Virus record (IMG/VR): IMGVR_UViG_3300049445_000017
Coordinates: 1-24,210 of that record
DNA length: 24,210 nucleotides
Source of the DNA: a virus
Strand: one strand, 5' to 3'
The translations under genes were made by a program, and so were the position numbers. Positions 1-17,279 of the stretch are shown here, in pieces. Each line of letters starts with the position of its first letter. Position 1 is the stretch's first letter. The notes beneath the pieces were generated by a model. It made no database searches. It was not told the DNA's origin and saw only the letters and a list, made by a program, of their open reading frames with translations.

Positions 1-102
1 AGTGCTGATGGTGACTGGACTGGATTCTATCGTCAAATGCGAACGGCTGAATCTGGCGACCCATACAAACCAATTCGTAAATTTCATCATGCGAGACACT
101 AA
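1..102 (+). CDS. C-terminal end of an unidentified phage protein (partial)
   Basis: An open frame runs in phase 1 from the first base to a TAA at 100-102 and gives the last 33 residues of a protein that begins outside the window. The visible tail is polar and basic and ends in Lys-Phe-His-His-Ala-Arg-His. The stop codon shares its last A with the ATG of the next gene, the same TAATG junction used repeatedly downstream, which supports this being a real gene end. In many tailed phages the large terminase subunit lies just upstream of the portal, so terminase is a reasonable guess from position. Nothing in 33 residues shows it: no Walker or nuclease motif is present. Confidence 0.6.
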   Translation, partial: SADGDWTGFYRQMRTAESGDPYKPIRKFHHARH

Positions 103-551: not shown

Positions 552-757
552 TGCCTGTTGGACCATCGGCGGGAATGCTTAAGAAAGTATTCGACCCGGC
601 TGTTATGAAAAAGAAAGTAAAGTCATCGCGTGGTTATGCTGAAAGCGGTGGCAACAATATTAAACGGCCGGAGATGGCTGCTGTCCGTAAGCAGAAGGGT
701 GAAGGCGGTAATAAGAAGATGAAGCTAATGCGTGCTGACGCAACACAAGGTGATTGA
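551..757 (+). CDS. Small basic protein, unknown function
   Basis: A 68-residue Lys-, Met- and Gly-rich protein. I chose the ATG at 551, not the in-frame GTG at 548. The ATG forms a TGATG overlap with the upstream stop and sits 7 bases after a very strong Shine-Dalgarno run (GAGGAGG, 537-543). No domain is recognisable. The residues Arg/Lys-Pro-Glu-Met-Ala-Ala-Val-Arg-Lys in the centre and the basic C-terminal third suggest nucleic-acid or acidic-protein contact, but that is speculation. The gene sits in a row of three very small genes before the portal and is coupled to the next gene by another TGATG overlap. Confidence 0.8.
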   Translation: MPVGPSAGMLKKVFDPAVMKKKVKSSRGYAESGGNNIKRPEMAAVRKQKGEGGNKKMKLMRADATQGD

Positions 758-909
758 TGCCTGCTACATCAGCTAAGCAATACAAATTTATGGCTGGTAT
801 CGCACATGGTATGAAGCCAACTAAAGGGCCGGGACCATCACCACAAGTAGCTGAAGAATTCGTTAAGAAGACACCGGCTGCTAAGCGTAAGCAGTTTGCA
901 AAGAAGTAG
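757..909 (+). CDS. 50-residue basic protein with S-x-K-Q-Y-x-F-M-A motif
   Basis: An open frame of 50 codons runs from ATG 757 (TGATG overlap with the previous stop, AAGGTGA at 747-753 upstream) to TAG 907-909, which abuts the portal ATG. The N-terminus contains Ser-Ala-Lys-Gln-Tyr-Lys-Phe-Met-Ala-Gly-Ile-Ala-His-Gly. This recalls the short 'SxxQxxFM...A..G' proteins found near packaging genes of many phages (DUF3008-like in general style). The C-terminal half is Lys/Ala-rich and strongly basic. The tight stop/start contacts on both sides and the absence of internal stops are the main evidence that it is expressed. Its function is unknown; a small DNA- or capsid-binding role is only a guess. 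Confidence 0.75.
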   Translation: MPATSAKQYKFMAGIAHGMKPTKGPGPSPQVAEEFVKKTPAAKRKQFAKK

Positions 910-3267
910 ATGCCTAATACCAAGCTCGATAAGCCAACACAAGAGAGGATTAAGAATCTTCTCAAGACTGTTGCGACTAATTTCGACCAAGAGGATAGAG
1001 CCGCTCGTGAACGCCAACTCCGTAATTGGCGGCGGCTCAAACTTCTTTGGGAAGGATTTCAGCGAGTTTGGTATTCTGAAGTAGCTCATGACTGGCGTAT
1101 CTGGGATGAAGAAATTTCTAATGCCGACAACGACCAAGCATTTTATGATAAGCCTATTAATGTATTCCGTGCTTATTTGGAGTCCCTTATTGCTGCTCTC
1201 TCTATTACAATTCCTGCAATAAAATGTTTTCCTGATGATGCAGAGAATCCTATTGACTTGTCAACGGCTAAGGCTGGTGATAAGATTGCTGAACTGATTT
1301 ATAGACATAACGATGCACCGATTCTTTGGCTGCACGCTCTATACATTAACATGACCGAAGGTATGACAGCAATGTATTCATACCCAAAGTCCGATAAAGA
1401 ATATGGAACGTATAAAGAGAATGTATACAAGAAAGAGAATATTGAAGCTTACATCTGTCCGATATGCAAGAATCAGTTGGATGATGACTTATTCACTAAG
1501 CAGGAGATTGACGAATTTCAACCTGATGACGATGATATTGAACTGCACAATCTGATTATTAATGAAAATCAGGTTGTTTGTCCTCAGTGCGCAGCGCAGT
1601 TAGACCCAAGTTTGCAGAAATCTCCGCTTGTTGTTACTAGATTTGTTGACCAGAAAGAAGTGCCAAAGTCTAGAATTTGCATGGAAGTATACGGTGGTCT
1701 ATACGTAAAGGTGCCTAACTATGCAATGAAGCAAGCTGATTGCCCATATCTTATCTTTAGTTATGAAACTCACTACACTAATGCCCTTGATAGATATGAC
1801 CATCTAAGAGATAAATTTGATTCCAACGGCAAGAAGATTGGTCCTGCTGGTGGAGGAATGTATGACCCATATGAACAGTGGGCAAGGTTGTCACCTCAGT
1901 ATCGTGGTGAGTATCCTCTTAATAATGTTACTGTTAGAAATTGTTGGCTTCGTCCTTCAGCGTTCAACGTTCTGAATGAAGAAGATACTAAACTACTCAA
2001 GAAGCATTACCCTGATGGAGCTAAGTTAGTTCTGGTCAATGATGAATGGGCCGCTGATGAGAATGAAAGCCTTGACGATTGCTGGACTATCATTAAGAAT
2101 CCTCTGTCAGATTACATTCATTACTATCCAACTGGCTCTCTGTTGGTTAGCGTTCAGGACATTACTTCTGATTTGATTTCTTTGGTTCTGCAAACCATTG
2201 AACATGGTATTCAACAGACGTTTGCAGACCCAGGAGTTTTGAACTTTGAGAAATACCGTGAGGCTGAAACAATGCCCGGCGGTATTTATCCTGCTGTTCC
2301 GAAGACTGGTAAATCTGTTGGAGATGGATTCTTTGAAACTAGAACGGCTACCCTAAGCCAGGAAGTATTGCCATTCTTCAACATGATACAGACCCTCGGC
2401 CAGTCTGTATCTGGCGCTCAACCGTCGTTGTTTGGTGGTCAGCTTTCTGGCTCACGTACTGCATCTGAGTATTCAATGAGTAGAGCGCAAGCACTTCAGC
2501 GCCTACAGAATACTTGGAAGACTTATACTCTTTGGTGGAAGCAAATCTTTGCCAAAGTAATTCCAATGTATATTCAGGAAGTTCAGGAAGATGAGAAATC
2601 TACTGAACGGAATGAACAGGGTAACTTCATTAACGTGTTCATTCGTAAGGCAGAACTTGAAGGGCGTATTGGTAGAGTTGAGCTAGAAGCTAATGAGAAT
2701 CTCCCAATTACCTGGTCACAGCGCAAGGATACCTACATGGAGCTACTCAAGCTCCAGAATCCAGAAATCCTTAAAGCACTTGCAGACCCAGAGAATGTTA
2801 AGTCCCTCGTCGAAGCTATCGGACTTGATGACTTTACTGTACCGGGTGAGGATGATAGACAGAAGCAATATGAGGAGATTAGACTTCTAATTAACTCTGA
2901 GCCTATTGAGATTCCTGTTGACCCGATGATAGCAGCGCAAGCTGTAATGTCTGGTCAGCCGCCACCACCTGATACTGAAGAACCATCTGTTGGAATTGAC
3001 CCTGACCTAGATAATCACGATATTGAAGCTGAAGTTTGCAGAACATATCTAGTATCTGATGCTGGTAGGCTGCTTAAGATTGAAAATCCTCTTGGGTATA
3101 AGAACGTACTGCTTCACATGAAAGAACATATGAAGCAAATTCAAATGAGTATGGGTACTGCTCCACAAGCACCAATGCCACCAGCAGGCGGCGGACCCAC
3201 ACCACCACAGCCAACAGGTACTAATATGCCTTTGGCGGAGAATGACAATGTTTCTGCACAAGCTTAA
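910..3267 (+). CDS. Portal protein with zinc-ribbon-like insertion
   Basis: The 785-residue product is the head portal: a ring at one capsid vertex through which DNA is packaged and ejected, and to which the neck is attached. The call rests on length, on position directly before scaffold and major capsid genes, and on a conserved-looking core at about residues 439-570. That core includes Gly-Gly-Gln-Leu-Ser-Gly-Ser-Arg-Thr-Ala near residue 514 and a long helical stretch rich in Gln, Trp and Leu, as in podoviral portals of the P22 size class (P22 portal is about 725 aa). Unusual for a portal is the segment at 183-227, which holds two Cys-Pro-x-Cys knuckles (Cys183/186 and Cys224/227) separated by an Asp/Glu-rich spacer. 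The C-terminus (about 745-775) is Pro/Gly/Gln-rich. The ATG abuts the previous TAG. The last 20-26 bases overlap the scaffold gene. Confidence 0.9.
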   Translation: MPNTKLDKPTQERIKNLLKTVATNFDQEDRAARERQLRNWRRLKLLWEGFQRVWYSEVAHDWRIWDEEISNADNDQAFYDKPINVFRAYLESLIAALSITIPAIKCFPDDAENPIDLSTAKAGDKIAELIYRHNDAPILWLHALYINMTEGMTAMYSYPKSDKEYGTYKENVYKKENIEAYICPICKNQLDDDLFTKQEIDEFQPDDDDIELHNLIINENQVVCPQCAAQLDPSLQKSPLVVTRFVDQKEVPKSRICMEVYGGLYVKVPNYAMKQADCPYLIFSYETHYTNALDRYDHLRDKFDSNGKKIGPAGGGMYDPYEQWARLSPQYRGEYPLNNVTVRNCWLRPSAFNVLNEEDTKLLKKHYPDGAKLVLVNDEWAADENESLDDCWTIIKNPLSDYIHYYPTGSLLVSVQDITSDLISLVLQTIEHGIQQTFADPGVLNFEKYREAETMPGGIYPAVPKTGKSVGDGFFETRTATLSQEVLPFFNMIQTLGQSVSGAQPSLFGGQLSGSRTASEYSMSRAQALQRLQNTWKTYTLWWKQIFAKVIPMYIQEVQEDEKSTERNEQGNFINVFIRKAELEGRIGRVELEANENLPITWSQRKDTYMELLKLQNPEILKALADPENVKSLVEAIGLDDFTVPGEDDRQKQYEEIRLLINSEPIEIPVDPMIAAQAVMSGQPPPPDTEEPSVGIDPDLDNHDIEAEVCRTYLVSDAGRLLKIENPLGYKNVLLHMKEHMKQIQMSMGTAPQAPMPPAGGGPTPPQPTGTNMPLAENDNVSAQA
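3237..3240 (+). promoter_or_regulatory. Start-deciding ribosome-binding site for scaffold
   Basis: GGAG inside the 3' end of the portal gene is 7 bases before ATG 3248 and 1 base before ATG 3242, favouring the second start. Confidence 0.55.
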
Positions 3268-4540
3268 TCTGATTCCGTTCTTTGCTCCTGTTGATACGGC
3301 TACTGGTCCAATTGAAGATAAATCTCTGAGCAGAGAAGATGTCATTGAATTACTTGGTGAAGACGAGCCAGAACAAGAAACTATTGAACTGGAAAAGCCT
3401 GCGAAAAAGGCTTCTAAAGAAACTGATAAAGAAGACGAAGAAGAAACTAAAGAAGAGAAAGAACTCTCTTTAGAAGATGAGATTGAGGAAGAACTTGCAG
3501 AGCCAGATGAAGATAGGCTGGAACTGGTTGTTCCTCTCCGCCGTAAGGAAATTCTAGCTAAGTATCCTGAAATCTTTAAGGATTTTCCAGGACTTGAATC
3601 ATCTATCTATCGTGAGAAGGCATTTACTGAGTTGCTTCCTACGATTGCAGATGCTAAAGCCGCTGTCGAGAAATCTGAACGGCTGGATACTTATGAGAAT
3701 GAAATCATGGAAGGCTCAACTGAGAGCCTGTTGAATGCTGTTCTCAACACAGATAAGAATTCGTTTGACAAGGTAATTGATAATTATCTTCCAACACTTT
3801 ACAAGGTTAATGAAGCTGCTTATTATCACACTATCGGTAATGTCATTAAGCATACCATTATGACTATGGTTAAGGATGGAAGAGATAATGGTGTAGAGGA
3901 TTTGCTTGGAGCCGCTGATGTACTTAATCAGTATATCTTTGGCACCAAAACATTCACTCCACCGCAAAAGCTTTCTACTGACACGAAGAATCCTGCAACT
4001 GATGAAGTAGCTGAACGTGAACGTGCATTTCAGCAACGTCAGTTTGACACGGCTAAGGACACTGTTACTAGTAAGACAGAGAATGTTCTGAAAGCTACTA
4101 TCGATAAGAATATTGACCCCAATGGGTCGATGACTGATTATGTTAAGAAGAATGCTACTCGTGAAGCATTCGATAATCTTGAGAACGCTATCGCCGCTGA
4201 TAGCCGATTTAGAGCTGTTTTAGATAAGCTTTGGGAAAAAGCATTTAGTGATGATTTTAGCACAGAGTCAATGGACAGAATTAAATCTGCCTACACGTCC
4301 AAGGCAAAGACTCTACTGCCAGCTATTATCAAGAAAGCACGTAACGAAGCATTGAAAGGACTCGGTAAGAGAGTTCGAGATGATGATGAAGATACTGATA
4401 AGAAAGATAAACGTGGACCTTTACCTGTTGGAAAAGCACGGAGTCAATCCACCTCCCCTCAAAGTGGAAAGACGGTAAAGGACCAAGCTAGGTCTATCCC
4501 AAAAGGGACTAGCACTTTAGACTATTTGATGCGAGATTGA
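3248..4540 (+). CDS. Scaffolding protein (probable)
   Basis: A 430-residue, highly charged, mainly helical protein between portal and capsid genes. This is the usual place of the scaffold that templates procapsid assembly and is later released. Residues about 25-85 are dominated by Glu, Asp and Lys. The middle (about 100-330) is helical. The C-terminal 70 residues are basic (Lys/Arg-rich with Ser/Thr/Gly/Pro), as in scaffolds whose basic tail binds the coat protein. I chose the ATG at 3248 because a GGAG (3237-3240) lies 7 bases before it; the in-frame ATG at 3242 lies only one base after that motif, so a start two codons earlier is less likely but possible. The gene overlaps the portal end. 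No protease motif was found, so a fused maturation protease is not supported. Confidence 0.8.
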   Translation: MFLHKLNLIPFFAPVDTATGPIEDKSLSREDVIELLGEDEPEQETIELEKPAKKASKETDKEDEEETKEEKELSLEDEIEEELAEPDEDRLELVVPLRRKEILAKYPEIFKDFPGLESSIYREKAFTELLPTIADAKAAVEKSERLDTYENEIMEGSTESLLNAVLNTDKNSFDKVIDNYLPTLYKVNEAAYYHTIGNVIKHTIMTMVKDGRDNGVEDLLGAADVLNQYIFGTKTFTPPQKLSTDTKNPATDEVAERERAFQQRQFDTAKDTVTSKTENVLKATIDKNIDPNGSMTDYVKKNATREAFDNLENAIAADSRFRAVLDKLWEKAFSDDFSTESMDRIKSAYTSKAKTLLPAIIKKARNEALKGLGKRVRDDDEDTDKKDKRGPLPVGKARSQSTSPQSGKTVKDQARSIPKGTSTLDYLMRD

Positions 4541-4550
4541 GGACATTAAC

Positions 4551-5798
4551 ATGGCACTAGTTGAATCTCAGGTTACTGCACTTGAGCTTGAAAGAGTAAT
4601 TCCGAAGATTCGGACACTCTTTGAGCGAGATGACAAGTTCTTCGCTAACATTCAGAAGCGGGATGTTGAGAAGATTTCCAACCGTCAGATGCGAGTTCCT
4701 CTTGAACTGCGTCCCGGTGGTTCTTTTCAGTATTTCAATCCTGATGGCGGAGATTTGGGTCGTGGCGGTGGGCCGTCGTTTGATAAGGCGGTTCTTAGCT
4801 GCGTATTCGTTTCCGAGAACATCGAATACACCAAGCTGGCACAGTGGGCTACCGATGATGATAGGAAGTCTATTGTCAACGGTGTTCGTCGTCTTACTGC
4901 TACAGCATTGGATGAGCTTCGCCGTCAGCTTGATGCTCAGATGATGCAAGCTGGTAACGGTGTCATTGGCACTGTTACTACTGATACTCCTGCCGGTGGT
5001 AGCAACGTTGTTGTTATGACCACTGATGGATTTGGTGCTCGTCTGATGCGTTTTGGTCAGACTGTACAGGTATTCAATTCCACTCTTGCTACTAACAGGG
5101 GCAGCGGAGTTATTACCTTCTGGGACGTTGAAAACAAGACTATCAACATCACTCCCCAGATTGCTGGTGTGACTGGTGGTGACTTTATTGTTACCAACGG
5201 TATCAGTGCTCCTACTGCATTGCCCGCTCTGTTTGGTGTTCCATATCACCACAGCAATGCTTCCACTGGCACTTGGCTTGGCTTTAGCCGTGCTATCACT
5301 CCTGAAATTCGTGCAAATCGAGTGAACGCGGCTTCTGCTGCATTGACATTGCCTCTGCCACGCCTTGCCATTAACAAGATTGGCAATCGTATTGGTATTG
5401 ACAATGACTTCGCTCCTGCTGCATGGATGCATCCTGCTCAAAAGGCAGCTTATGAGGAAATTGGACAGCTTATGTCCACTATCTTCAAGAAGCCGTCTGA
5501 TGAGAGCTTGAATGTTTACTTTGATGGGATGCAGATGGCTGGTGCTCCTGTTAAGTGCTCATTCAATTGGGATAAAACCCGTATTGATTTCGTTACTGAT
5601 TCTGTGTGGGGTCGTGGTGAAATTCTCCCACTTGGATTCTATACTACTGATGGCCGTAACATCTTTGAAATCCGTGGAGCTTCCGGTGGTGTCGCTACTG
5701 CCGAAATCTTCTACATGGTTATTGGCACTCAGACGTTTGTTAACAACCCTGCTGGCTGTTCATTCATTGACACGCTAGCCGTTCCATCGGGGTACTAA
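4551..5798 (+). CDS. Major capsid protein
   Basis: This 415-residue protein follows the scaffold and an AGGA motif (4540-4543) 7 bases before its ATG. It is the probable HK97-fold shell subunit. Length, position and composition fit: many Gly, Asn, Thr and Val residues, an N-terminal helix rich in Glu and Arg (about 8-50), a Gly-rich turn with Asp-Gly-Gly-Asp-Leu-Gly-Arg-Gly-Gly-Gly near 65-75, a helix ending in Leu-Asp-Glu-Leu-Arg-Arg-Gln-Leu-Asp near 120-130, and a C-terminal beta-rich domain with an Ile-Gly-Thr-Gln strand near the end. It shows the most GC-rich, regular codon choice around it, as expected for the most abundant protein. No N-terminal protease-cleavable delta domain is obvious. 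A long reverse-strand open frame across it is a by-product of this codon bias. Confidence 0.9.
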   Translation: MALVESQVTALELERVIPKIRTLFERDDKFFANIQKRDVEKISNRQMRVPLELRPGGSFQYFNPDGGDLGRGGGPSFDKAVLSCVFVSENIEYTKLAQWATDDDRKSIVNGVRRLTATALDELRRQLDAQMMQAGNGVIGTVTTDTPAGGSNVVVMTTDGFGARLMRFGQTVQVFNSTLATNRGSGVITFWDVENKTINITPQIAGVTGGDFIVTNGISAPTALPALFGVPYHHSNASTGTWLGFSRAITPEIRANRVNAASAALTLPLPRLAINKIGNRIGIDNDFAPAAWMHPAQKAAYEEIGQLMSTIFKKPSDESLNVYFDGMQMAGAPVKCSFNWDKTRIDFVTDSVWGRGEILPLGFYTTDGRNIFEIRGASGGVATAEIFYMVIGTQTFVNNPAGCSFIDTLAVPSGY

Positions 5799-5799
5799 C

Positions 5800-6015
5800 A
5801 TGGCAGCTACAATTACGGTTACTGGAACTGCCGGAGCTGGTCTTACTGTGACCTCTGCGGTATTCAACAATATCACCTCTTTTACTATTGATGCGGTGAA
5901 TAACCTCATCACTATGTTTCAGGGTGGTACTGCACTGCCAGCTATCAGTATTAACGCTGCTACCACAGTGACTGCCACTAAGGCTGCTGCTGTTTGGACT
6001 CTGACAATTAGCTAA
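5800..6015 (+). CDS. Small virion protein, candidate head decoration
   Basis: A 71-residue Thr/Ala/Val-rich protein one base after the capsid gene stop. It is predicted as almost all beta strand, with no charged helices and few charged residues at all. It ends Ala-Ala-Val-Trp-Thr-Leu-Thr-Ile-Ser, an ending of the type seen in short bacteriophage surface proteins. Its place directly behind the capsid gene, followed by two similar small proteins, makes capsid decoration or cement the most natural hypothesis. There is no specific family motif I recognise. No strong Shine-Dalgarno precedes it, so it is probably translated by ribosomes finishing the capsid gene, which would give near-capsid expression. 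Confidence 0.75.
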   Translation: MAATITVTGTAGAGLTVTSAVFNNITSFTIDAVNNLITMFQGGTALPAISINAATTVTATKAAAVWTLTIS

Positions 6016-6026
6016 CATTGGAATCT

Positions 6027-6032
6027 AGGAGG
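6027..6032 (+). promoter_or_regulatory. Perfect Shine-Dalgarno AGGAGG
   Basis: AGGAGG lies 8 bases before ATG 6041 in a 25-base gap. It is followed by a second GGAGG (6035-6039) too close to the start to be used. This is the strongest free-standing ribosome-binding site in the window and implies high expression of the following small protein. Confidence 0.85.
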
Positions 6033-6040
6033 GTGGAGGA

Positions 6041-6346
6041 ATGATTCCAGGTCTTACAACAAAGCTATCGGAGACTAACGTAGCAGCGGCTGCTTCTATC
6101 TTTGCAAAATCAGATATCGTTCGCGTGACTGACACTACTAGCACTACGGTACTAACTACTATTGTACCGGGTGCTGCTGGTTTTAGTCAGGTCTGCTTCT
6201 TGCAGAATAAGAGCGGCGCTTCTATCACTATTGTTACCACTGGAAATGTGGTTGGCTCTGGCACATTTACAGTTCTTAACAATAGAATGGCTGTACTTGT
6301 GTTCAGCAAGCTCGAACAGAAGTGGTCAGTTTGTCAGGATACGTAG
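6041..6346 (+). CDS. Small beta-rich virion protein, paralogue of the next gene
   Basis: This 101-residue protein has a perfect ribosome-binding site and an all-beta composition. Its C-terminal half contains Thr-Thr-Gly-Asn-Val-Val-Gly-x-Gly-Thr followed by an Ala-Val-Leu-Val-Phe strand and a Trp-Ser-Val ending. The next protein has the same order of elements (Gly-Asn-Val-Val-Gly-Gly-Thr, then Cys-Leu-Leu-Val-Phe, then Tyr-Thr-Val-Val), so the two probably arose by duplication. Placement after the capsid gene and strong translation signals suggest a high-copy virion component such as a capsid decoration protein. A phage fold of this kind could equally be a small tail component, so the assignment is inference. 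It ends in TAG, unusual here, with a fresh Shine-Dalgarno before the next gene. Confidence 0.75.
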   Translation: MIPGLTTKLSETNVAAAASIFAKSDIVRVTDTTSTTVLTTIVPGAAGFSQVCFLQNKSGASITIVTTGNVVGSGTFTVLNNRMAVLVFSKLEQKWSVCQDT

Positions 6347-6350
6347 TCTA

Positions 6351-6355
6351 AGGAG
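6351..6355 (+). promoter_or_regulatory. Shine-Dalgarno AGGAG
   Basis: AGGAG five bases before ATG 6361, within a 14-base gap, giving the second paralogue its own initiation site. Confidence 0.8.
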
Positions 6356-6360
6356 AAGAA

Positions 6361-6675
6361 ATGCCGGACCTAAATTTTCAAGACATTTCGACTGTTCAGG
6401 GTCTTGGTCAGCCAAAGCCGGTAACATTTACGGCTGCGGCTACTATTGCACCTAGTACGTTTCTCACTATTCTTTCTGGTAACACAGCGGTGAGCACCAT
6501 TACACCTCCTGTTACCGGAACGCATATGTTGTGCATCGTTCCAGGTACTACTACTGGATTCACAACTGGTGGAAACGTTGTTGGTGGAACTACTACTGTT
6601 GCAAGCCGAGCGTGCTTGCTTGTATTTAACCCACTTACTGCTGCCTACACTGTGGTTACTGGAGCCACTGGTTAA
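6361..6675 (+). CDS. Small beta-rich virion protein, paralogue of the preceding gene
   Basis: A 104-residue Thr/Gly/Ala/Val-rich protein with almost no charged residues after the first 20. The segment Gly-Gly-Asn-Val-Val-Gly-Gly-Thr-Thr-Thr-Val (about 73-83), then Leu-Leu-Val-Phe, parallels the preceding 101-residue protein. This supports a tandem duplication that has diverged strongly at the N-terminus. The likely role is a surface or decoration protein of the head, present in many copies. This is inferred from position behind the capsid gene and from its own Shine-Dalgarno. It is the last gene before the longest gap and the enzyme gene, so it may close the head-protein translation unit. Confidence 0.75.
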   Translation: MPDLNFQDISTVQGLGQPKPVTFTAAATIAPSTFLTILSGNTAVSTITPPVTGTHMLCIVPGTTTGFTTGGNVVGGTTTVASRACLLVFNPLTAAYTVVTGATG

Positions 6676-6743
6676 ATCCTAGTTACTTGCCCAGTAACAG
6701 GTAGTCGGGCTGCGCATGACTCTAATCACGCAGATTTAATTAT
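6676..6743 (+). promoter_or_regulatory. Longest intergenic gap, with two hairpins
   Basis: This 68-base gap holds two inverted repeats. The first has a 6-bp stem GTTACT/AGTAAC (6682-6687 with 6693-6698) around a 5-base loop, extended by CCT/AGG across a bulged A. The second is CTGCG/CGCAG (6710-6714 with 6729-6733), continued by TGA/TCA after a 2-base bulge, and is followed by an AT-rich run ATTTAATTAT up to the next ATG. There is no Shine-Dalgarno before that ATG. The structures could form an inefficient terminator or attenuator that lowers the next (enzyme) gene relative to the capsid genes, or could control its translation. The T-run after hairpin 2 is too broken for a confident intrinsic terminator call. 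Confidence 0.45.
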
Positions 6744-7940
6744 ATGGCAAAAGTTTTAGTTGGTGTTCCTACAGCCGAAGGTGCAAGACACGCTAATTTC
6801 TATGACTATTATAATGCCTTAGATAGACCAGAAGGCACTCTACATATGTTTGCACGAGGCCAATCACCGGCTCGTGGCAGGAATATGATTATCCAGGCTG
6901 CAATTGATAATGACTGTACTCACATCTTCTTTCTAGATGATGATGTCATTCCTCAGCCGGATATCATTAACCGATTGCTAGCGCATGATAAAGACGTAGT
7001 AACTGGTCTTTATGCTATGCGGGACTTTCCTCATTTTCCAGTAGCATTTGATAAGAGGTTTCCCAACGGATTTAACAGGCATGTCCATCTTAACGGAGAT
7101 GTTGACGGTCTGGTAGAAATTACTAACTGTGGATTGGGATGCGTTCTCATTAAGATGGACGTATTCAATAAGGTTCCTAAGCCTTGGATTACACTTGGCG
7201 AACTGGAATCTGATGGTTGGTGTGATGACATTGCATTCTTCAATAAGGTTGGAGATGCAGGCATCAAGATGTACTGCGATACCAACGTACTTGTTGACCA
7301 TATGATGACGGTCAATGTTGGATATCGTAAAGTTGATGGTGTTTGGGCTATCAATTACGATGTTAGAGGTAAAGGTAATTGTCAATTTCCTATCTCCTAT
7401 CCAGCCGCTGACGTTGATATGGCGAAGCGGATTGAAGGATGGATGTCAGATAAGGAATTGGAGTTTCTTGGCATTGTAGCTAAGAATCACGAGTACCTAT
7501 TTGAGGTTGGTTCTTATAAAGGTAAGTCAGCTAGAGTTATGGCTGACAATACTAAAGGTAAACTTATCTGCATTGATACCTGGAATTCAATTGTTCACTC
7601 TAATGATGGTAGGGTAATTTACAAGACTAGTGATGACACCTACGCCGATTTTGAGAAGAATCTAAAAGAGCATATTGATAGTGGTAAAGTAATTCCATAT
7701 AGAATGGATTATCAGAAGTATGTGCCTAACGGTTTCCAGCCCGATTTTATTTTTATTGATGCAGCACATGATTATGAGTCAGTAAAACTTGATATTGAGA
7801 AATCAATGTCAATGAACCCTAAAATCATAGCGGGTCACGACTATGATTCAAAGGTGTGGCCTGGTGTTGTTAAGGCTGTGGATGAAAGATTCGGCGAAGT
7901 TAACCACGTTGACACAATTTGGTGGAAAGAAAATGACTGA
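6744..7940 (+). CDS. Glycosyltransferase-methyltransferase fusion enzyme
   Basis: A 398-residue two-domain enzyme. Residues 1-225 look like a GT-A glycosyltransferase: an opening beta strand Val-Leu-Val-Gly-Val-Pro-Thr, the segment Ala-Arg-Gly-Arg-Asn (43-47) before a helix, and the metal/nucleotide-sugar motif Asp65-Asp66-Asp67 after a hydrophobic strand. Residues about 235-398 look like a class I SAM-dependent methyltransferase of the Methyltransf_24 type. They show motif I Glu254-Val-Gly-Ser-Tyr-Lys-Gly-Lys-Ser262, a ribose-binding acidic strand end at Asp278-Thr-Trp, Ile338-Asp-Ala-Ala-His-Asp-Tyr344, and Gly364-His-Asp-Tyr367. Both key motif sets look intact. It would transfer a sugar and a methyl group, perhaps making a methylated glycan. 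The substrate is unknown: virion protein, host surface glycan or a soluble sugar. It sits inside the structural operon and lacks its own Shine-Dalgarno. The stop overlaps the next gene's start region. Confidence 0.85.
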   Translation: MAKVLVGVPTAEGARHANFYDYYNALDRPEGTLHMFARGQSPARGRNMIIQAAIDNDCTHIFFLDDDVIPQPDIINRLLAHDKDVVTGLYAMRDFPHFPVAFDKRFPNGFNRHVHLNGDVDGLVEITNCGLGCVLIKMDVFNKVPKPWITLGELESDGWCDDIAFFNKVGDAGIKMYCDTNVLVDHMMTVNVGYRKVDGVWAINYDVRGKGNCQFPISYPAADVDMAKRIEGWMSDKELEFLGIVAKNHEYLFEVGSYKGKSARVMADNTKGKLICIDTWNSIVHSNDGRVIYKTSDDTYADFEKNLKEHIDSGKVIPYRMDYQKYVPNGFQPDFIFIDAAHDYESVKLDIEKSMSMNPKIIAGHDYDSKVWPGVVKAVDERFGEVNHVDTIWWKEND

Positions 7941-8283
7941 TTACACTCACAATCCATTGGACGACGAGAAGAAGGTTTCCAATCCTCCGTATGTTCCACC
8001 TTTTGCAGAACCAGCAAAGGAACCCGAACTCAAGAGTGGAGAGATTGAACCTTTGCATGTTACTGAGGCTAAAGCTGCTGCTGAACGACTTGCTGCACCA
8101 CCGGCTGCACCTGTTGTTCATAAGGAAGTATTGCTTACTCCTAAGCAGCACAAGCTTAAGGAACTCAAGGATGCATTGCTAGCGGACATCCAAGAGATTC
8201 TTAAAGACCACGGTGGTATCGAATCCAATATCGGTATTGGACATCCATACTGGGATATGCAGAATCGTCTTCGGAGCATGTAA
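7933..8283 (+). CDS. Hypothetical protein, Pro/Ala-rich with helical C-terminus
   Basis: The gene encodes 116 residues from the ATG at 7933, which overlaps the enzyme gene by 8 bases. The same frame is open further upstream, but an earlier start at 7843 would overlap the enzyme by almost 100 bases and adds nothing plausible. The N-terminal half (1-60) is rich in Pro, Glu and Ala and probably disordered. Residues about 70-100 form a Lys/Leu/Asp/Glu helix, and the end contains Gly-His-Pro-Tyr-Trp-Asp-Met. The function is not recognised. It sits between the enzyme and the neck genes and is joined to the next gene by TAATG, with a GGAG (8273-8276) 6 bases before that ATG. Confidence 0.75.
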   Translation: MTDYTHNPLDDEKKVSNPPYVPPFAEPAKEPELKSGEIEPLHVTEAKAAAERLAAPPAAPVVHKEVLLTPKQHKLKELKDALLADIQEILKDHGGIESNIGIGHPYWDMQNRLRSM

Positions 8284-8867
8284 TGGAAATTCCGGAAGAA
8301 ATAGAATCAATTAACCGAAGATTAGTTGACCACTTTGGTTTAGATACTTCTACCAACCAGCCGATTTGGCGTGTTGTGTGGAGTGAAGACCAATTTGAGC
8401 ATCGTCTCGGTACTTATGACGACTTTGTTCCTAACACTGAGATATACCTGAGAACAGTTACTGAAGTTAGATACGTTCCTAAGTACAGTCAGTGGTTGCC
8501 AAATGTTTATGTTCTTGAACGGCTCGTTGTTGTTCCAGATAATAACATTCCAGAATTGCCGGCAACGAAACTGTCTTATGAACCGATTTATGCATTCAGA
8601 ACTACCTCTGGTATTCCATTGCCGCCGAAATTTGCAGCGGCTAAGTTTGCCATCGATTTGATTTATGCTGCTCAAGGTAAGAGTTCAGTAGCTAAGTATA
8701 AAGACCCAGATGCAGGTCTAGATACAGAACAGCAATTTGAGAAGAAAATTGAGGAAATCGATACTCTTCAAAAAGAACTGTTCGGCAATGAATCATATGT
8801 TGGTGATGCTCTGGCTCACAAACAAGCTGTTATCGTTCCACGTAACTTTGAAAAACAGGTGAAATAA
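8283..8867 (+). CDS. Hypothetical neck-block protein
   Basis: A 194-residue soluble protein with a Trp/Tyr/Val-rich beta section (about 25-110) and a helical charged C-terminal region (about 125-175). I cannot assign a family. No catalytic motif, signal peptide or membrane segment is visible. It lies in the run of genes leading to the adaptor and hub, joined on both sides by TAATG overlaps, and so is probably a virion assembly component or accessory. An AGGTGA (8857-8862) near its end serves the next gene. Confidence 0.7.
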   Translation: MEIPEEIESINRRLVDHFGLDTSTNQPIWRVVWSEDQFEHRLGTYDDFVPNTEIYLRTVTEVRYVPKYSQWLPNVYVLERLVVVPDNNIPELPATKLSYEPIYAFRTTSGIPLPPKFAAAKFAIDLIYAAQGKSSVAKYKDPDAGLDTEQQFEKKIEEIDTLQKELFGNESYVGDALAHKQAVIVPRNFEKQVK

Positions 8868-9598
8868 TGGGTGTTGTTGGACAGTTTCCATTGATGTCGG
8901 ATTTGAAGCGCAGAACTATTCGCGCTCCTGTGAATCCTCTGGATGTATGCTCTGTTGTTTCTATTTATCCAAAGCATATTCCACCTGAGATTAAACCGAC
9001 TCTTACACCTGGTGTATTTCAGATTCCATACGGTACTTATGAGAAGCCTGGAGTGCTGGTCGTTGGTCCTAGCTCGTGGTGGAAAGAGCTGGATGAAAAT
9101 CAGCCGCTTTTGGAAATCCCTGCATCATCTGTACAGATTGCTGAGTCAATTGTAAAAGATTGGGCTAACGGCATTTACGGATGCGACATGGGCGAGAACA
9201 TGCCTGGATTGTTCTTTGTTCCTGGTTGTAAGCATGATAAGCATGGTGAGCCGGATGTGCCACTTACTATTGAATGGGTTCAGAAAGAGAAGAAACATCT
9301 TCTTGATGAAGCCAATCGTAAGCAGCGCAATTGGTTCCAGTGGCTTGTGAAAGCTGCTGATACTTCTTGGGCTAGGTCAAACGGTAGTCCACTTGCTATC
9401 AGTGATGATATGCGAATGGCTGCTCGTGAATTGAATCTTATTCAAAAGGAATGGTTGGCTGACGCTGAGGTTGTTGACCTTGTTCGTTGCAAAGCTTGTG
9501 GGCATCTCAAGAATCCAGCTTATCCAATCTGCCCGAATTGCAAATCTATTGATGACCCGGCTAAAGCTTTGATGCTTGGCCTGAAGTTCGCACAGTAA
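8867..9598 (+). CDS. Hypothetical protein with C-terminal zinc ribbon
   Basis: A 243-residue protein. Its C-terminal section holds a clean four-cysteine zinc-ribbon pattern, Cys208-x2-Cys211 and Cys222-Pro-Asn-Cys225, separated by ten residues. It is followed by a short helix. The N-terminal two thirds has a Pro-rich beta part (1-90, including Gly-Pro-Ser-Ser-Trp-Trp) and a helical part with Lys, Glu, Trp and Gln (about 140-200). Zinc ribbons in phage structural operons usually stabilise small folds or contact nucleic acid or protein; no enzymatic residues are visible. It directly precedes the adaptor candidate (stop and next ATG abut), so a neck or head-completion role fits its position. That role is inference. 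Confidence 0.75.
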   Translation: MGVVGQFPLMSDLKRRTIRAPVNPLDVCSVVSIYPKHIPPEIKPTLTPGVFQIPYGTYEKPGVLVVGPSSWWKELDENQPLLEIPASSVQIAESIVKDWANGIYGCDMGENMPGLFFVPGCKHDKHGEPDVPLTIEWVQKEKKHLLDEANRKQRNWFQWLVKAADTSWARSNGSPLAISDDMRMAARELNLIQKEWLADAEVVDLVRCKACGHLKNPAYPICPNCKSIDDPAKALMLGLKFAQ

Positions 9599-10312
9599 AT
9601 GTCTACTTCATCATATACCGCTGCCGATGTAATGGATAAAGCTGCGGCTTTGATGAATGACGCAGCTAAAACATCTTATACTTATGCGGCTATGCAACCA
9701 TACCTGAATATGGCTCTTGATGAACTTCAAGAGTCATTTCAGTTGAATAATATTCCAATTTACAATGCTACTTCTGCTGCTATCGTTGTTCCAATTGGTA
9801 CTGTGGCTATCAATGCTGTTGATGGTCCTGGTGTAGGTTCTGCACCTTTACTTCCGTCTGATATAGTAGAAATTCAAGGACTGTATGAACGACTCAGCGG
9901 AAGCCAAGACCCTTATATTCCAATGGTTCAACGAGAGTTCTTACCCCATGCATTGGATAATCTTCCTACTGAAGCCTTACAGTATTGGGTTTATCAGGGT
10001 CAACGAATCCTATTTATTGGTGCATTAACCATCAGAGATGTAAAGATTGACTACCTCAAAGCAATCGTTACGACTGATGCTACTTCTGCCACCGTTATTG
10101 GTGTTATTGATGCTAAATCGTTTTTGTATTATAGAACGGCTGCGCTCTGTACTCAGTTCATTGGTGAGAATGCAACCAGAGCTGAAGCATTGAACAGTAA
10201 CGCTATTATGTCACTGGACAGAGTTACTGGCATTGGCGTTAAAGGCAAGCAATCCATTCAAACGAGACGTAGACCATTCATGAGTGCTTACAAGCGTAGG
10301 AGCTTCACGTAA
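9599..10312 (+). CDS. Head-tail adaptor / connector protein (probable)
   Basis: A 237-residue protein with an N-terminal helical segment (about 8-48: Asp-Val-Met-Asp-Lys-Ala-Ala...Leu-Asp-Glu-Leu-Gln-Glu-Ser-Phe) followed by a beta section with Leu-Pro-Ser-Asp-Ile-Val-Glu-Ile and a basic C-terminal tail (Arg-Arg-Arg-Pro-Phe near the end). This arrangement is typical of the small adaptor ring that docks under the portal in podoviruses (P22 gp4-like role). It starts right after the preceding stop without a Shine-Dalgarno. It is coupled to the hub gene by TAATG, with AGGAG (10298-10302) nine bases before that start. Order adaptor then hub matches the P22 neck. The exact family needs profile comparison. 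Confidence 0.65.
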   Translation: MSTSSYTAADVMDKAAALMNDAAKTSYTYAAMQPYLNMALDELQESFQLNNIPIYNATSAAIVVPIGTVAINAVDGPGVGSAPLLPSDIVEIQGLYERLSGSQDPYIPMVQREFLPHALDNLPTEALQYWVYQGQRILFIGALTIRDVKIDYLKAIVTTDATSATVIGVIDAKSFLYYRTAALCTQFIGENATRAEALNSNAIMSLDRVTGIGVKGKQSIQTRRRPFMSAYKRRSFT

Positions 10313-11820
10313 TGAGTCGCGACCATAATCCTGTAGTAATTGAAGACTTCAATGGTTGGTGGAGTCGTGGAGATGCTGAATCTTGTCCGCTAGACCACTT
10401 TAGTCAGGCTGACAATATTCAGTATTTCTACTCAGGATTTGAGACTCGTGATGCAATAAATGTATATCAAACTGGTGGTCCCACGCTAACAAATGTTGCT
10501 AGGATTCATCCATATATTATGCAGACTCAGCATTCTTTGCTGGTTCTGAATACATCAGGAGATATTTATCATATTAAGAGTCCAAGTGTTACAGTTGGAC
10601 CAATTCTATCAATTCCAGCAATGAAAGATTTCAACGTTGCATCAATTGATGGAAGAGCTTATATCACTCCATTCTTTACTGATGTGGATGGATATGAAAA
10701 AGGATTAATGAATGATTTCCTTTATGTATACAAGGGCGATGGAACAGCCGCTCGTAAAGCCGCTGGTAATCCACCTACAGGAACGCCATTAATTGCTACG
10801 TTTGGCTCAGCCGGATTTGCTGATTTAGGATTTCATCTTTTTGCAGTTGTCTATGAAACCGATACTGGTTATCTTACTGCCCTTGGACCAGCGGTATTTG
10901 CATCTGCTACAGCTTCAGATACTACTCACGGTTATCACATTAGTAACGTCCCTGTATCTCCTGATTCTTTTGTTGTTAAGCGCCATATTTTGGCTACTAA
11001 AGCTATTACGAATTATGATGGCAACCAAGATGGGTTTATTTTTTATTCTATTCCTAATGGTATTATTAACGATAATGTTAGTACGACAATAGATGTCAGC
11101 TTCTTCGACATCGATTTACTTGAAGAACAAAGCCATTTAATTGATAATTTCTCACAGATTCCGGCTGGAGTTGGAATTACTACATATCACGGTAGATTGA
11201 TTCTCACAACTACGTTTACTGATATCTCAGTTGCTTACGGTTCTGCGGCTGGAGAACCTGAAGCTATTAACCAAGTTGATGGAGTAATGATTGTTCCTCT
11301 CGATGGTAGACCACTTACCAATTGTCAAGAATATAGAGATGTTCTCTATTTGTTTAAGGCTAGTTCAACTGTAGGATATTCAGACAATCAGGATGACCCT
11401 GCTACATGGGCATCATTCAAGGTTGATGAAGCTATTGGCTGTCCTTGTCACGGAATTGCTACAGTTCTAGATTCGGGTGGAGTTAACGTAGACTACCTAT
11501 TGATTGCAGATTTATCTGGATTAATGATTTTCAATGGCTCATACGCTACATTGCCACTGTCATACAACATTGAGAATTACTGGTTTGATATGCCAAAAGA
11601 TGATTTTGAATTTATTCAGATAGTATGTGATTCACTTGGTAAGAAGATTTGGATGACACTTCCATCTCCAAGGAATCACATTCTTCTTATTGATTATAAT
11701 GAAGGACTAACTAAAGAAACTGTTAAATGGGCTAGATGGATATTTGATGCCAATATTAGCTCACTTTGCCTCACAAACATTAACCAACTTATCGTTGGTG
11801 CTTTGAGTACTGTAGTTTAA
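10312..11820 (+). CDS. Tail hub / stopper protein (probable)
   Basis: A 502-residue, beta-rich protein with few long helices, close in size to the P22 gp10 packaged-DNA-stabilisation hub (about 470 aa). The N-terminus has Phe-Asn-Gly-Trp-Trp-Ser-Arg-Gly followed by Asn-Ile-Gln-Tyr and a Gly-Phe-Glu-Thr-Arg-Asp-Ala segment, the kind of opening seen in phage hub proteins that list strand repeats of a propeller. Regular Gly/Asp turns every 40-50 residues suggest a beta-propeller-like middle. Cys-Pro-Cys-His appears once near residue 380. It follows the adaptor and precedes the fibre block. The stop overlaps the next ATG by one base. A simple fibre protein is the main alternative. Confidence 0.65.
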   Translation: MSRDHNPVVIEDFNGWWSRGDAESCPLDHFSQADNIQYFYSGFETRDAINVYQTGGPTLTNVARIHPYIMQTQHSLLVLNTSGDIYHIKSPSVTVGPILSIPAMKDFNVASIDGRAYITPFFTDVDGYEKGLMNDFLYVYKGDGTAARKAAGNPPTGTPLIATFGSAGFADLGFHLFAVVYETDTGYLTALGPAVFASATASDTTHGYHISNVPVSPDSFVVKRHILATKAITNYDGNQDGFIFYSIPNGIINDNVSTTIDVSFFDIDLLEEQSHLIDNFSQIPAGVGITTYHGRLILTTTFTDISVAYGSAAGEPEAINQVDGVMIVPLDGRPLTNCQEYRDVLYLFKASSTVGYSDNQDDPATWASFKVDEAIGCPCHGIATVLDSGGVNVDYLLIADLSGLMIFNGSYATLPLSYNIENYWFDMPKDDFEFIQIVCDSLGKKIWMTLPSPRNHILLIDYNEGLTKETVKWARWIFDANISSLCLTNINQLIVGALSTVV

Positions 11821-13196
11821 TGGCACCTCCAGCTAATACTACATTCGCAACGGCTGTTACCATTAGCACATTTCCGTTTACTTTCACTCAAAGTGACATT
11901 AATGATGCTGGAACAAACTTTAATGTTTTCTATAGATTCATTGCTCCTGTTGGTTCTACTGTAGTTGGGGTTTGGGGATTCTCTGGAAATGTTAGCTCAG
12001 GTTATCAACCAACATGTGAACCATTTGATGGTCCTGTAGGTTCCCCTACAAGAATTCTATCTATTGCAGGTCAGAATATTCCAGTTCAATTTCCAGTAGT
12101 TCCTGGGAATGAATATTTCTTAGAGTTTATTAAAAATACGAATACGGCTGGTCCAGAACATATTGACATCAGCTTAATAGTTCATCCTGATACTGCTATT
12201 GCTGATGGTACTATTGCTGTTCCGGATGATACTGTAGGATTTCCTCTAGCAGTCATGTCACAATCTGTTGACAATACTGCTATTGCATTTGTTCCCGGAA
12301 TGCCAGCCGGTGAGGGTGGAGATATTACAACTAATGGCATAATGTGCTTGGAGAATAGTGCAAATTCTCGTGTAGACATTTATAATAGGAATTTTGCTTT
12401 AGTTGTATCCAGAGCAATATCTGGGAACAGTTTAAGAGTTAGAACTTGCAGGGGTGTTAATAAGTTTTATGTTGGGTCTGATGAAAGTCCACCACATGTT
12501 AGAGTAATAACAGAGGCTGGTGTCGTAGGTGGAACCGTATTCGCTCTTTCAGGAACTAATCTTGAAAGCCTAGCTGCTGATAATGCTGAAGCAATTCTAT
12601 ATTATTGTGCTATTGGATTTGGAGTTCCTGTCAAACGGTGGGATTTAGTTAACAACATTGCTTTATCTGATTTAGTGGGTTCTGTAGCTACTTATCAGAG
12701 TCCTGATATTCTCGTACTTGCTGATGGCACTATTGTTGTTCTTTATTATAACTCTAGCACTAAAGATGTTCAGGTTAAACAGTATAGTGCTGCTGGTGCT
12801 CTACTAAATACTTATCCTCTTGGTGCTCAAACAGGCAGTACCAAACCAAGAATGGGATATGCTATAGATAACCCCAATTCATTTTGGGTGTTTACTCATA
12901 TTGTTGTTTCTACTAATGGTTCAACAGTAGCTAGAAACATCAAGGCTAGTGATGGTTCTATTCTTACGACAAGAACATGGATGGAGTATGAAGGTGGCGC
13001 TTATAATGGTCATCAGACAGCTACTCCATTAGCAAGATTTGGTAATTCATTCTCATGCCCATTCTTTGTCATGATGGGTGGCACTCCTGATTTATCTGGT
13101 GTATATTTCATGGATACTACTACTCATGATGCTTATAACACCGCCAACAAAAAAATTCCGAATCCAACGATTAGAACCGCTCTGATTGGTGAATAA
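11820..13196 (+). CDS. Large beta-rich tail protein
   Basis: A 458-residue Thr/Val/Ser/Asn-rich protein. The first 125 residues resemble a jelly-roll-like or pre-peptidase-type beta-sandwich (Phe-x-Phe-Thr, Tyr-Arg-Phe-Ile-Ala-Pro, then Pro-Gly-Asn-Glu-Tyr-Phe-Leu-Glu-Phe). Residues about 150-440 show repeating strand-turn units with Asp-Gly-Thr-Ile-x-Val, suggesting a propeller. Such proteins in phages often bind glycans or sit at the tail tip. No catalytic residues are recognisable. It lacks a Shine-Dalgarno and begins with TAATG, so translation depends on the hub gene. Confidence 0.7.
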   Translation: MAPPANTTFATAVTISTFPFTFTQSDINDAGTNFNVFYRFIAPVGSTVVGVWGFSGNVSSGYQPTCEPFDGPVGSPTRILSIAGQNIPVQFPVVPGNEYFLEFIKNTNTAGPEHIDISLIVHPDTAIADGTIAVPDDTVGFPLAVMSQSVDNTAIAFVPGMPAGEGGDITTNGIMCLENSANSRVDIYNRNFALVVSRAISGNSLRVRTCRGVNKFYVGSDESPPHVRVITEAGVVGGTVFALSGTNLESLAADNAEAILYYCAIGFGVPVKRWDLVNNIALSDLVGSVATYQSPDILVLADGTIVVLYYNSSTKDVQVKQYSAAGALLNTYPLGAQTGSTKPRMGYAIDNPNSFWVFTHIVVSTNGSTVARNIKASDGSILTTRTWMEYEGGAYNGHQTATPLARFGNSFSCPFFVMMGGTPDLSGVYFMDTTTHDAYNTANKKIPNPTIRTALIGE

Positions 13197-13516
13197 TGCC
13201 TGCAAGTGCTGTACTATCAGGTGGTAGCGGTGGAGAAGTAATTAGCCATTTTTCCGCTGTTAGAATTAGAGTTAATGGTTCTGGTTCATTGCAACTGGCT
13301 CTATTTTCACTGGATGATGTGACATCTGTTACATTAGTTCCACTTACAATGGCAGCGGCTACTAGGATTGTTCCAACCAGATTATGTAATTTTCAGGAAC
13401 ATCGAGCCGCTCTCGAAGTGAAAACTACTGGTATTGACGAGAATATGAGGATTAATAGAATTATTGTATTCAGCAGACCTGTCTTTACGGAATGGCCATC
13501 TACTGTATATACATAA
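13196..13516 (+). CDS. Small tail protein, unknown
   Basis: A 106-residue beta-type protein with Ser/Gly-rich N-terminus and strands Ala-Val-Arg-Ile-Arg-Val and Leu-Gln-Leu-Ala-Leu-Phe. A possible C-terminal strand ends Ile-Ile-Val-Phe-Ser-Arg-Pro. Nothing identifies a family. It is linked by TAATG before and directly abutting TAA/ATG after, in the fibre block, so a minor tail-tip or fibre-attachment part is the most economical view. Confidence 0.65.
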   Translation: MPASAVLSGGSGGEVISHFSAVRIRVNGSGSLQLALFSLDDVTSVTLVPLTMAAATRIVPTRLCNFQEHRAALEVKTTGIDENMRINRIIVFSRPVFTEWPSTVYT

Positions 13517-13939
13517 ATGGCTAAGAAAGACTTTGGACAGCCTGATTTCTCTCATCTGTTTGGAATTTTAGCTAACACTAAACTACAGCAGACTAATAAT
13601 TCTCTATATGAAACTATATTCCTTCTTATTAAAGAAGTTGTACAGTCCAGGGATTCTTTGGTTGTTCAGAACAATAACAATTCTCAGTCCCTAGCTCAAC
13701 TTCTTGGAGTTACGTATCTTACAGTAAACGATGAAACAGCATTACTTATCAATTCTAGAAAGCTTCTACCAGGAACTAATATAACTTTTAATGATGCAGT
13801 ACCTGGTCAGAGAACTATCAATGTTGCTGGTGGACCATTTGGTAATCATTACGATAGTCCATTATCAGATGGAGATACCTCAGCGGCTGAGTTGATATAT
13901 GCTAATGGTGAGTGCATCATTGTTCAAGTTCCAGTATAA
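13517..13939 (+). CDS. Fibre neck / trimerising tail protein (probable)
   Basis: A 140-residue protein. Residues about 15-62 form a polar, Gln/Asn-rich helix with hydrophobic spacing suited to a trimeric coiled coil. Residues 66-104 form a beta section with Leu-Leu-Pro-Gly-Thr-Asn-Ile-Thr-Phe and Gln-Arg-Thr-Ile-Asn-Val, of the type seen in phage tail-fibre shafts. The end holds Ser-Ala-Ala-Glu-Leu-Ile-Tyr-Ala-Asn-Gly-Glu-Cys-Ile-Ile-Val-Gln-Val-Pro. It precedes the collagen-like fibre gene and is joined to it by a TAATG. Coiled coil plus shaft-like strands argue for a fibre-anchoring role, with moderate support. Confidence 0.65.
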   Translation: MAKKDFGQPDFSHLFGILANTKLQQTNNSLYETIFLLIKEVVQSRDSLVVQNNNNSQSLAQLLGVTYLTVNDETALLINSRKLLPGTNITFNDAVPGQRTINVAGGPFGNHYDSPLSDGDTSAAELIYANGECIIVQVPV

Positions 13940-14598: not shown

Positions 14599-14599
14599 A

Positions 14600-15220: not shown

Positions 15221-15224
15221 AATT

Positions 15225-15229: not shown

Positions 15230-15235
15230 ATTAGA

Positions 15236-17275: not shown

Positions 17276-17279
17276 CATT

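What the first reader, a model, noticed from the sequence alone, without database searches (positions are those of the whole stretch)
6744..7940. Glycosyltransferase fused to a SAM methyltransferase inside the head-to-neck gene block
The sequence shows a GT-A-like half with Asp65-Asp66-Asp67 and a class I methyltransferase half with Glu254-Val-Gly-Ser and Asp339-Ala-Ala-His, in one frame with no broken motif. It lies between probable capsid decoration genes and the neck genes. GT-A and Methyltransf_24 families are known separately in phages. Inference: the enzyme glycosylates and then methylates something made with the virion, such as the decoration proteins at 5800-6675 (very Ser/Thr-rich), or remodels host surface sugars to block superinfection.
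Basis: partly seen in the sequence, partly recalled or inferred. Interest (0 to 1): 0.65.

Follow-up and report, generated by a model that had tools for sequence, protein, structure and literature searches.

The report
Phage sugar-adding and methyl-capping fusion enzyme
A soil phage carries one enzyme that most likely attaches a sugar to a threonine-rich loop of a small protein encoded just after its capsid protein and then caps that sugar with a methyl group; across related phages the loop is threonine-rich mainly when the sugar enzyme is present, which names a target that can be tested.

Summary
Window 6744-7940 is one intact 398-aa frame: a GT-A glycosyltransferase (residues 1-225, D65-D66-D67) joined to a class I O-methyltransferase (226-398). 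AlphaFold2 gives mean pLDDT 92; best fold matches are COLGALT1, STIV A197 and the mannoside O-methyltransferase MeT1.

In 78 related IMG/VR loci the slot between the "dec" genes and neck1 varies: MT then GT as separate, usually overlapping genes (28), GT alone (7), another domain plus GT (5), GT-MT fusion (3), MT plus X-GT (2), neither (33), never MT without GT. The fusion arose at least twice, in the order opposite to the separate genes.

The target prediction is new. Threonine in one loop of the protein encoded just upstream (dec3, 6361-6675) tracks GT presence: a TTT tract in 13/14 GT+ versus 4/31 GT- phages sampled without regard to GT, surviving phylogenetic correction. Serine, the rest of dec3, MCP and neck genes do not. 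GT-only phages have the loop too.

Most likely GT O-glycosylates the dec3 Thr loop with a host nucleotide sugar and MT caps that sugar. Precedents: PBCV-1 A064R, mycobacteriophage Corndog. No biochemistry exists.

The parts
6744..7418 (+). GT-A glycosyltransferase domain, residues 1-225 of the fusion (DXD block D65-D66-D67 at 6936-6944)
   Evidence: Pfam Anp1; GT alignment A1; AF2 and Foldseek to COLGALT1, STIV A197
7419..7940 (+). Class I SAM O-methyltransferase domain, residues 226-398 plus stop (E254 at 7503-7505, D339 at 7758-7760, GHDY 364-367)
   Evidence: Pfam Methyltransf_24; MT alignment A2; MeT1 as nearest solved relative
6361..6675 (+). dec3, 104-aa beta protein, predicted acceptor
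   Evidence: Thr content tracks GT presence across 74 loci; AF2 pLDDT 82.6
6547..6567 (+). Thr-rich loop of dec3, residues 63-69 (TTTGFTT), predicted O-glycosylation site
   Evidence: S/T at T64 in 77% of GT+ and 6% of GT- loci; loop listing
6041..6346 (+). dec2, 101-aa relative of dec3, possible further acceptor
   Evidence: profile overlap with dec3
5800..6015 (+). dec1, 71-aa small Thr-rich ORF; its presence does not follow GT
4551..5798 (+). major capsid protein, upstream anchor of the slot
   Evidence: phrog_14242 major head protein E 2e-5; synteny in 80 loci
7933..8283 (+). 116-aa ORF overlapping the fusion's stop by 8 nt (translationally coupled, unknown function)
   Evidence: sequence at 7933; homologues in some relatives
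8283..9598 (+). neck1 and neck2, downstream anchor of the slot (names by synteny only)
   Evidence: conserved after the slot in relatives

Best explanation
A bifunctional virion-modifying enzyme. Its GT-A domain uses a nucleotide sugar made by the host to O-glycosylate threonines of a Thr-rich surface loop of dec3, the small beta protein encoded immediately upstream and probably mounted on the capsid. Its methyltransferase domain then O-methylates that sugar and so caps it. Shown here: the intact two-domain protein, both folds (predicted), conserved catalytic motifs, purifying selection, the slot, MT never without GT, and the co-variation of loop threonine with GT. Inferred: catalytic activity, donor sugar, Thr-O linkage, dec3 on the capsid exterior, and masking or protection as the purpose of the cap.
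For: Folds: COLGALT1, STIV A197, B4GALNT1, GalNAc-T2 for the GT half; MeT1, a mannoside O-methyltransferase, for the MT half by fold and by profile. Slot: between dec3 and neck1 in relatives, 45 of 78 complete intervals carry GT, MT never occurs without GT. Two independent fusions. Acceptor: Thr of dec3 follows GT after phylogenetic regression (p 2e-12; Brownian 1e-8), Ser does not, MCP and neck controls do not; the excess lies in loop T63-T69; it holds on a dec3 tree without the loop (p 1e-9) while non-loop Thr does not; correlated-evolution test p 0.0018 and 0.014; MCP-sampled loci only 13/14 against 4/31, Fisher 4e-7. GT-only loci keep the loop, so it goes with GT. No nucleotide-sugar genes in 16 near-complete relatives, so a host donor. 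Precedents: PBCV-1 A064R, Corndog gp35-gp38.
Against: No biochemistry, no isolate, host unknown. dec3 and GT are neighbours and partly inherited together; the independent-pair tests on supported branches have only 4-5 pairs and no power. Several GT clades (for example L077, L102, L125, L130) go with loops poorer in threonine. dec3 is called a decoration protein from synteny only; its fold matches are weak.
Confidence: 0.6

Rival explanations
1. Same enzyme chemistry, but the acceptor is another virion protein (MCP, dec1/dec2, tail tube or the collagen-like protein at 13912-14598); the dec3 loop is correlated only because it travels with the GT gene.
For: dec3 and GT are adjacent and partly co-inherited (9 GT changes on the dec3 tree against 16 on the MCP tree). 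Mycobacteriophage glycosylation is on capsid and tail tube proteins (PMC11600133, PMC12363180). The nearest GT fold is a collagen galactosyltransferase.
Against: Excess is Thr only, in one loop only, and at least two loop types of different length gained it. Collagen-like runs are equally common with and without GT, 4/14 and 5/14. MCP S+T does not change.
Confidence: 0.2
2. The enzyme modifies host surface polysaccharide (LPS, capsule, teichoic acid) to block superinfection.
For: Phage glycosyltransferases that change host O-antigen are well known (general knowledge). Orphan GT genes outside the head slot exist in some relatives.
Against: No transmembrane or lipid-carrier partner gene in the slot; gene lies inside the head block in all 45 GT+ intervals; loop-Thr co-variation in a structural protein is not expected; a distant GT also sits directly after the MCP gene in two complete phages.
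Confidence: 0.1
3. GT glycosylates dec3, but the MT methylates something other than the sugar (a dec3 side chain or another substrate); fusion only couples expression.
For: The MT's acceptor is not demonstrated here.
Against: MT never occurs without GT (0 of 45 intervals); nearest solved relative methylates a sugar; PBCV-1 A064R does GT and then sugar methylation in one chain.
Confidence: 0.05
4. A DNA-modifying enzyme (hypermodified base glycosylation or methylation), as the PHROG label 'DNA methyltransferase' on the MT half suggests.
For: phrog_2675 E 4.7e-12 on the MT half; weak phrog_842 hit (glucosyl-HMC glucosyltransferase) on the GT half.
Against: FIDAAHDY stands where a DNA N-methyltransferase would have N/DPPY; Methyltransf_24 and MeT1 are O-methyltransferase kinds; no thymidylate-synthase-type gene in 16 near-complete relatives.
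Confidence: 0.02

Closest known systems
Chlorovirus PBCV-1 A064R (GT-GT-methyltransferase acting on the capsid N-glycan; PMC9614988)
   Same: One chain with GT-A domain and C-terminal class I methyltransferase; viral; builds and then O-methylates a sugar on a capsid glycan. The family's GT2-GT fusions resemble its two-GT part.
   Different: Eukaryotic algal virus, N-glycan, three domains; no close sequence match shown here. Acceptor of the window protein is inferred to be Thr of a small protein.
Mycobacteriophage Corndog gp35-gp38 (O-methyltransferase and three GT genes in the virion operon; PMC4351075)
   Same: O-methyltransferase gene before GT genes inside the head genes of a siphovirus; capsid and tail tube modification reported (PMC11600133, PMC12363180).
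   Different: Separate genes between portal and protease; no tblastn match of P0001 to any mycobacteriophage at 1e-5. Homology not tested directly (record not held).
STIV A197 (viral GT-A protein proposed to glycosylate the capsid protein; PMC10551542)
   Same: Best PDB sequence hit (E 0.0066 single, 0.00046 profile) and Foldseek E 1e-10; minimal viral GT-A domain.
   Different: Archaeal virus, no methyltransferase; donor and acceptor unknown there too.
MeT1 of Mycobacterium hassiacum (mannoside 1-O-methyltransferase; PDB 6g7d, PMC9883506)
   Same: Nearest solved relative of the MT half by profile (1e-7) and fold (5e-9).
   Different: Cellular, single domain, works on methylmannose polysaccharide; 17-19% identity.
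Human COLGALT1 (PDB 9evj)
   Same: Top PDB Foldseek hit for the model (4e-12); adds a sugar to a side-chain hydroxyl of a protein.
   Different: Acts on hydroxylysine in collagen; 13% identity; modest TM-score over the whole chain.

Membership tests
GT-A glycosyltransferase | GT-A Rossmann-like fold | tested here: met
   AF2 pLDDT over 90 for most of residues 1-225; Foldseek to many GT-A enzymes
GT-A glycosyltransferase | DXD metal/nucleotide motif conserved | tested here: met
   D65, D67 invariant in A5; D66, D67 invariant in A1
GT-A glycosyltransferase | sugar transfer activity and donor | not testable with these tools
   needs assay
Methyltransf_24 / class I sugar O-methyltransferase | profile match over curated cut-off and class I fold | tested here: met
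   37.8 bits against 26.3; Foldseek to MeT1 and other O-methyltransferases
Methyltransf_24 / class I sugar O-methyltransferase | SAM motif (E-x-G) and acidic residues conserved | tested here: met
   E254, G256, D278, D339, H365-D366 invariant in 16 homologues
Methyltransf_24 / class I sugar O-methyltransferase | sugar as methyl acceptor | not testable with these tools
   only by nearest relative MeT1 and by dependence on GT
PBCV-1 A064R-type GT-methyltransferase | GT and methyltransferase in one chain of a virus | tested here: met
PBCV-1 A064R-type GT-methyltransferase | sequence homology to A064R | not tested
   no direct alignment made; works like it, descent not claimed
Virion (capsid) glycosylation system of phages | gene in the virion operon | tested here: met
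   between MCP and neck genes in 45 of 78 loci
Virion (capsid) glycosylation system of phages | glycan on a virion protein | not testable with these tools
   no virions; indirect support from loop threonine
DNA methyltransferase (PHROG label) | N/DPPY-type catalytic motif | tested here: not met
   FIDAAHDY at that place

The most novel reading that the evidence does not exclude
A modular capsid-glycan cassette: a GT-A core co-evolves with a Thr-rich acceptor loop on a small capsid-associated protein and trades partner domains (methyltransferase, second GT, radical SAM), placed before or after the GT, fused or as an overlapping gene, to diversify the virion's sugar coat.
Probability: 0.45. Interest if true: 0.75.

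Novelty: new variant of a known kind. Interest (0 to 1): 0.6.

Why it matters
Virion glycosylation in bacterial phages is known from few isolates, and acceptor sites are hard to predict. Here comparative genomics names an enzyme pair, an acceptor protein and a seven-residue loop that can be tested by co-expression in E. coli. It also shows one phage family repeatedly swapping glycan-tailoring enzymes at one slot, as expected if sugar coats diversify under selection by hosts, defences or soil surfaces. For annotators: a GT-methyltransferase fusion in the head block should be read as likely virion glycan capping and not as DNA methylation, the PHROG label.

Tried and rejected
Genome-contig scans for P0001 and for the MCP found no cellular or prophage relative, so the host is unknown. 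The MCP, portal and dec3 have no tblastn match in 50,697 phage records. A full-length alignment with MT-only rows misaligned MT to the GT half and was discarded; AF2 was run on fused plus GT rows instead. Collagen-like protein as substrate: no association with GT. Presence of dec1 against GT: no association. Shared ancestry as the reason for the loop correlation: tested by regression and correlated-evolution models on the MCP tree and on a dec3 tree without the loop; the effect shrinks but stays. Selection of loci as the reason: repeated with MCP-found loci only and became stronger. dec3 fold: only weak hits, tailspike-type beta domains among them, E 0.3-0.7. The small protein between MCP and GT in two unrelated complete phage genomes is neither a dec3 homologue nor Thr-rich, so the acceptor prediction is for this family only. 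Direct comparison with Corndog was not possible (record not held), and Freeman 2023 itself was not in the library; it is cited through two other papers.

Full report
Observation. The window is one IMG/VR virus record of 24,210 bases. The ORF 6744-7940 is open from ATG to stop and encodes 398 residues. Pfam finds Methyltransf_24 (E 3.9e-9, residues 254-355) and Anp1 (E 9.5e-7, residues 42-87), with weaker Glycos_transf_2. PHROGs gives GT-like and methyltransferase-like families on the two halves. AlphaFold2 on an alignment of 41 homologues gives mean pLDDT 92.3 and pTM 0.63, that is, two confident domains with loose relative placement. Foldseek places the GT half with COLGALT1, STIV A197, B4GALNT1, GlfT2 and GalNAc-T2, and the MT half with MeT1, a sugar 1-O-methyltransferase, and other O-methyltransferases. 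MeT1 is also the best PDB sequence for the MT profile (1e-7). Both halves are under purifying selection against the fused homologue in L096 (dN/dS 0.13 and 0.11).

Anatomy across relatives. A search with the MCP returned 80 loci of related viruses, 72-100% identical in MCP, none in annotated phage records or genomes. Between dec3 and neck1 many carry the same two domains as separate genes in the opposite order, MT first, usually overlapping GT by 1 to 22 nt. Searches with GT and MT profiles widened this to 247 loci. In 78 distinct complete MCP-neck1 intervals the slot holds: nothing of this kind 33, MT+GT 28, GT alone 7, X-GT 5, GT-MT fusion 3, MT plus X-GT 2, and MT without GT never. X is a second GT2-type domain in L077, L081 and L107 by sequence; L111, L112 and L158 have an N-terminal extension of like length. 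In L104 X is a radical SAM domain; in L120 (and by position L127, L136) the extra domain follows the GT (Pfam PF04055 over cut-off in L120, just under it in L104). Some GT-negative slots hold a roughly 300-aa protein whose sequence looks like a beta-helix (Pfam silent). GT-MT fusions also occur in phages without this MCP (L196, L200, L202, L207, L209, L211), and BFVD holds viral models aligning over both halves.

Origin of the fusion. In the GT tree the window and L096 form a 100/100 clade inside a set of MT+GT and GT-only loci, while L150 sits elsewhere with L043 and L011. Forcing the three fusions together is rejected (p-AU 0.013). The MT tree also separates them, and all family MTs (100/98) lie apart from the MTs of the distant fusions. 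So fusion happened at least twice within the family, in the order GT-MT although the free genes run MT-GT. Repeated fusion and the obligate company of MT with GT argue for one pathway in which MT acts on GT's product. L004 matches the window with one mismatch over its first 7400 bases, then diverges within the MT domain (73% aa), so MT alleles are exchanged within the gene, unless the contig is chimeric.

Acceptor. I tested whether their composition depends on the enzyme. S+T of the dec2/dec3 family is higher in loci with GT/MT (0.245 against 0.189); MCP and neck2 show no difference and neck1 goes slightly the other way; after phylogenetic correction none of the three controls is significant. 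For the dec3-type protein alone (74 loci), phylogenetic regression over all 20 amino acids singles out threonine (slope +0.060, p 2e-12; under Brownian motion 1e-8). Serine shows nothing (p 0.7); the next effects (Trp, Arg, Phe) are weaker and small in size. The excess lies in one loop, window T63-T69 (S/T at T64: 77% against 6%). GT-positive loops read FTTTTPxAFTTTGN or PGTTTGFTTGGN; GT-negative ones QFAGVAGVTAAGN or FTNASPGAFLTSGN at the same place. On a dec3 tree built without the loop, loop threonine still follows GT (p 1e-9) while non-loop threonine does not (p 0.26). A correlated-evolution likelihood test gives p 0.0018 on that tree and 0.014 on the MCP tree. With only the loci found by MCP, hence not chosen for GT, TTT is in the loop of 13/14 GT+ and 4/31 GT- (Fisher 4e-7; regression p 1e-15 to 7e-11). 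Of the four exceptions, L032 carries a GT upstream in its contig, L013 is the near-twin of L014 which does, and L022 and L044 are fragments. GT-only loci have the same loop, so it goes with GT and not MT. AF2 puts the loop in a long excursion between two strands (pLDDT about 85).

Limits of that argument. dec3 and GT are neighbours and partly inherited together: GT presence needs 16 changes on the MCP tree but 9 on the dec3 tree, and independent-pair tests on supported branches have only 4-5 pairs and no power. The hypothesis (S/T richness) was given beforehand, but the threonine and loop focus was found by looking, so its p-values are exploratory. Some GT clades (for example L077, L081, L101, L102, L125, L130) go with fewer loop threonines. 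'Decoration' and 'neck' are synteny names; dec3's fold matches are weak.

Mechanism proposed. During late expression the GT takes a host-made nucleotide sugar (none of 16 near-complete GT+ relatives encodes an NTP_transferase or epimerase family gene), attaches it to loop threonines of dec3, and the MT caps a hydroxyl of that sugar with methyl from SAM. What the coat is for is open: hiding receptors or epitopes, resisting glycosidases, or tuning adhesion.

Comparison. [quoted passage not shown] Corndog carries an O-methyltransferase gene followed by three GT genes in its virion operon (PMC4351075), and capsid and tail tube modification has been reported (cited in PMC11600133 and PMC12363180). 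STIV A197 is an essential viral GT-A protein proposed to glycosylate the capsid protein (PMC10551542). The window protein works like these; descent from any of them is not shown. New here are the repeated fusion in reversed order, the swapping of partners and the acceptor loop.

Verdict. Real, well conserved, not an artefact. A new variant of virion glycosylation, with an unusually specific and testable substrate prediction.

Noticed in passing
L120:5983-7614; L104:5086-6708; L127, L136: The same GT is joined to a radical SAM domain, after it in L120 and before it in L104; a radical SAM enzyme in a phage head-gene slot is unusual.
   Followed up: partly
L077:11924-13234; L081:11976-13304; L107; also L111, L112, L158 by position: A second GT2-type domain is fused in front of the GT, giving 436-442 aa proteins in the same slot, mostly without MT.
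   Followed up: partly
L054:11961-12866 and L055-L069, L084: GT-negative relatives often carry in the same slot a roughly 300-aa protein with beta-helix-like sequence and no Pfam hit.
   Followed up: no
L010:2806-3564; L014:1228-1920; L020:3194-3868; L032:2816-3526; L027, L028: Orphan copies of the GT lie 7-9 kb upstream of the MCP in some relatives; four of them plus L159 form one GT clade. L010 has both copies.
   Followed up: partly
L004:1-7902 against window 1-7902: One mismatch over the first 7400 bases, then abrupt divergence inside the MT domain: allele exchange or an assembly fork.
   Followed up: partly
window 13912-14598: Collagen-like Gly-X-Y protein (Pfam Collagen E 1e-10), probably a tail fibre; its presence is not linked to GT.
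   Followed up: yes
window genes 102-19468: Only 7 of 26 gene starts have a Shine-Dalgarno-like motif, a possible hint at a host with weak SD use; the fusion gene itself has none.
   Followed up: no
L252:2065-3640 (MW202496.1); L253:5582-7142 (MW202711.1): Two complete phage genomes without this MCP family also have a distant homologue of this GT two genes after the MCP and before a neck-type gene.
   Followed up: partly
window 16892-17275: 127-aa ORF whose N-terminus reads like a GNAT acetyltransferase, without a Pfam hit.
   Followed up: no
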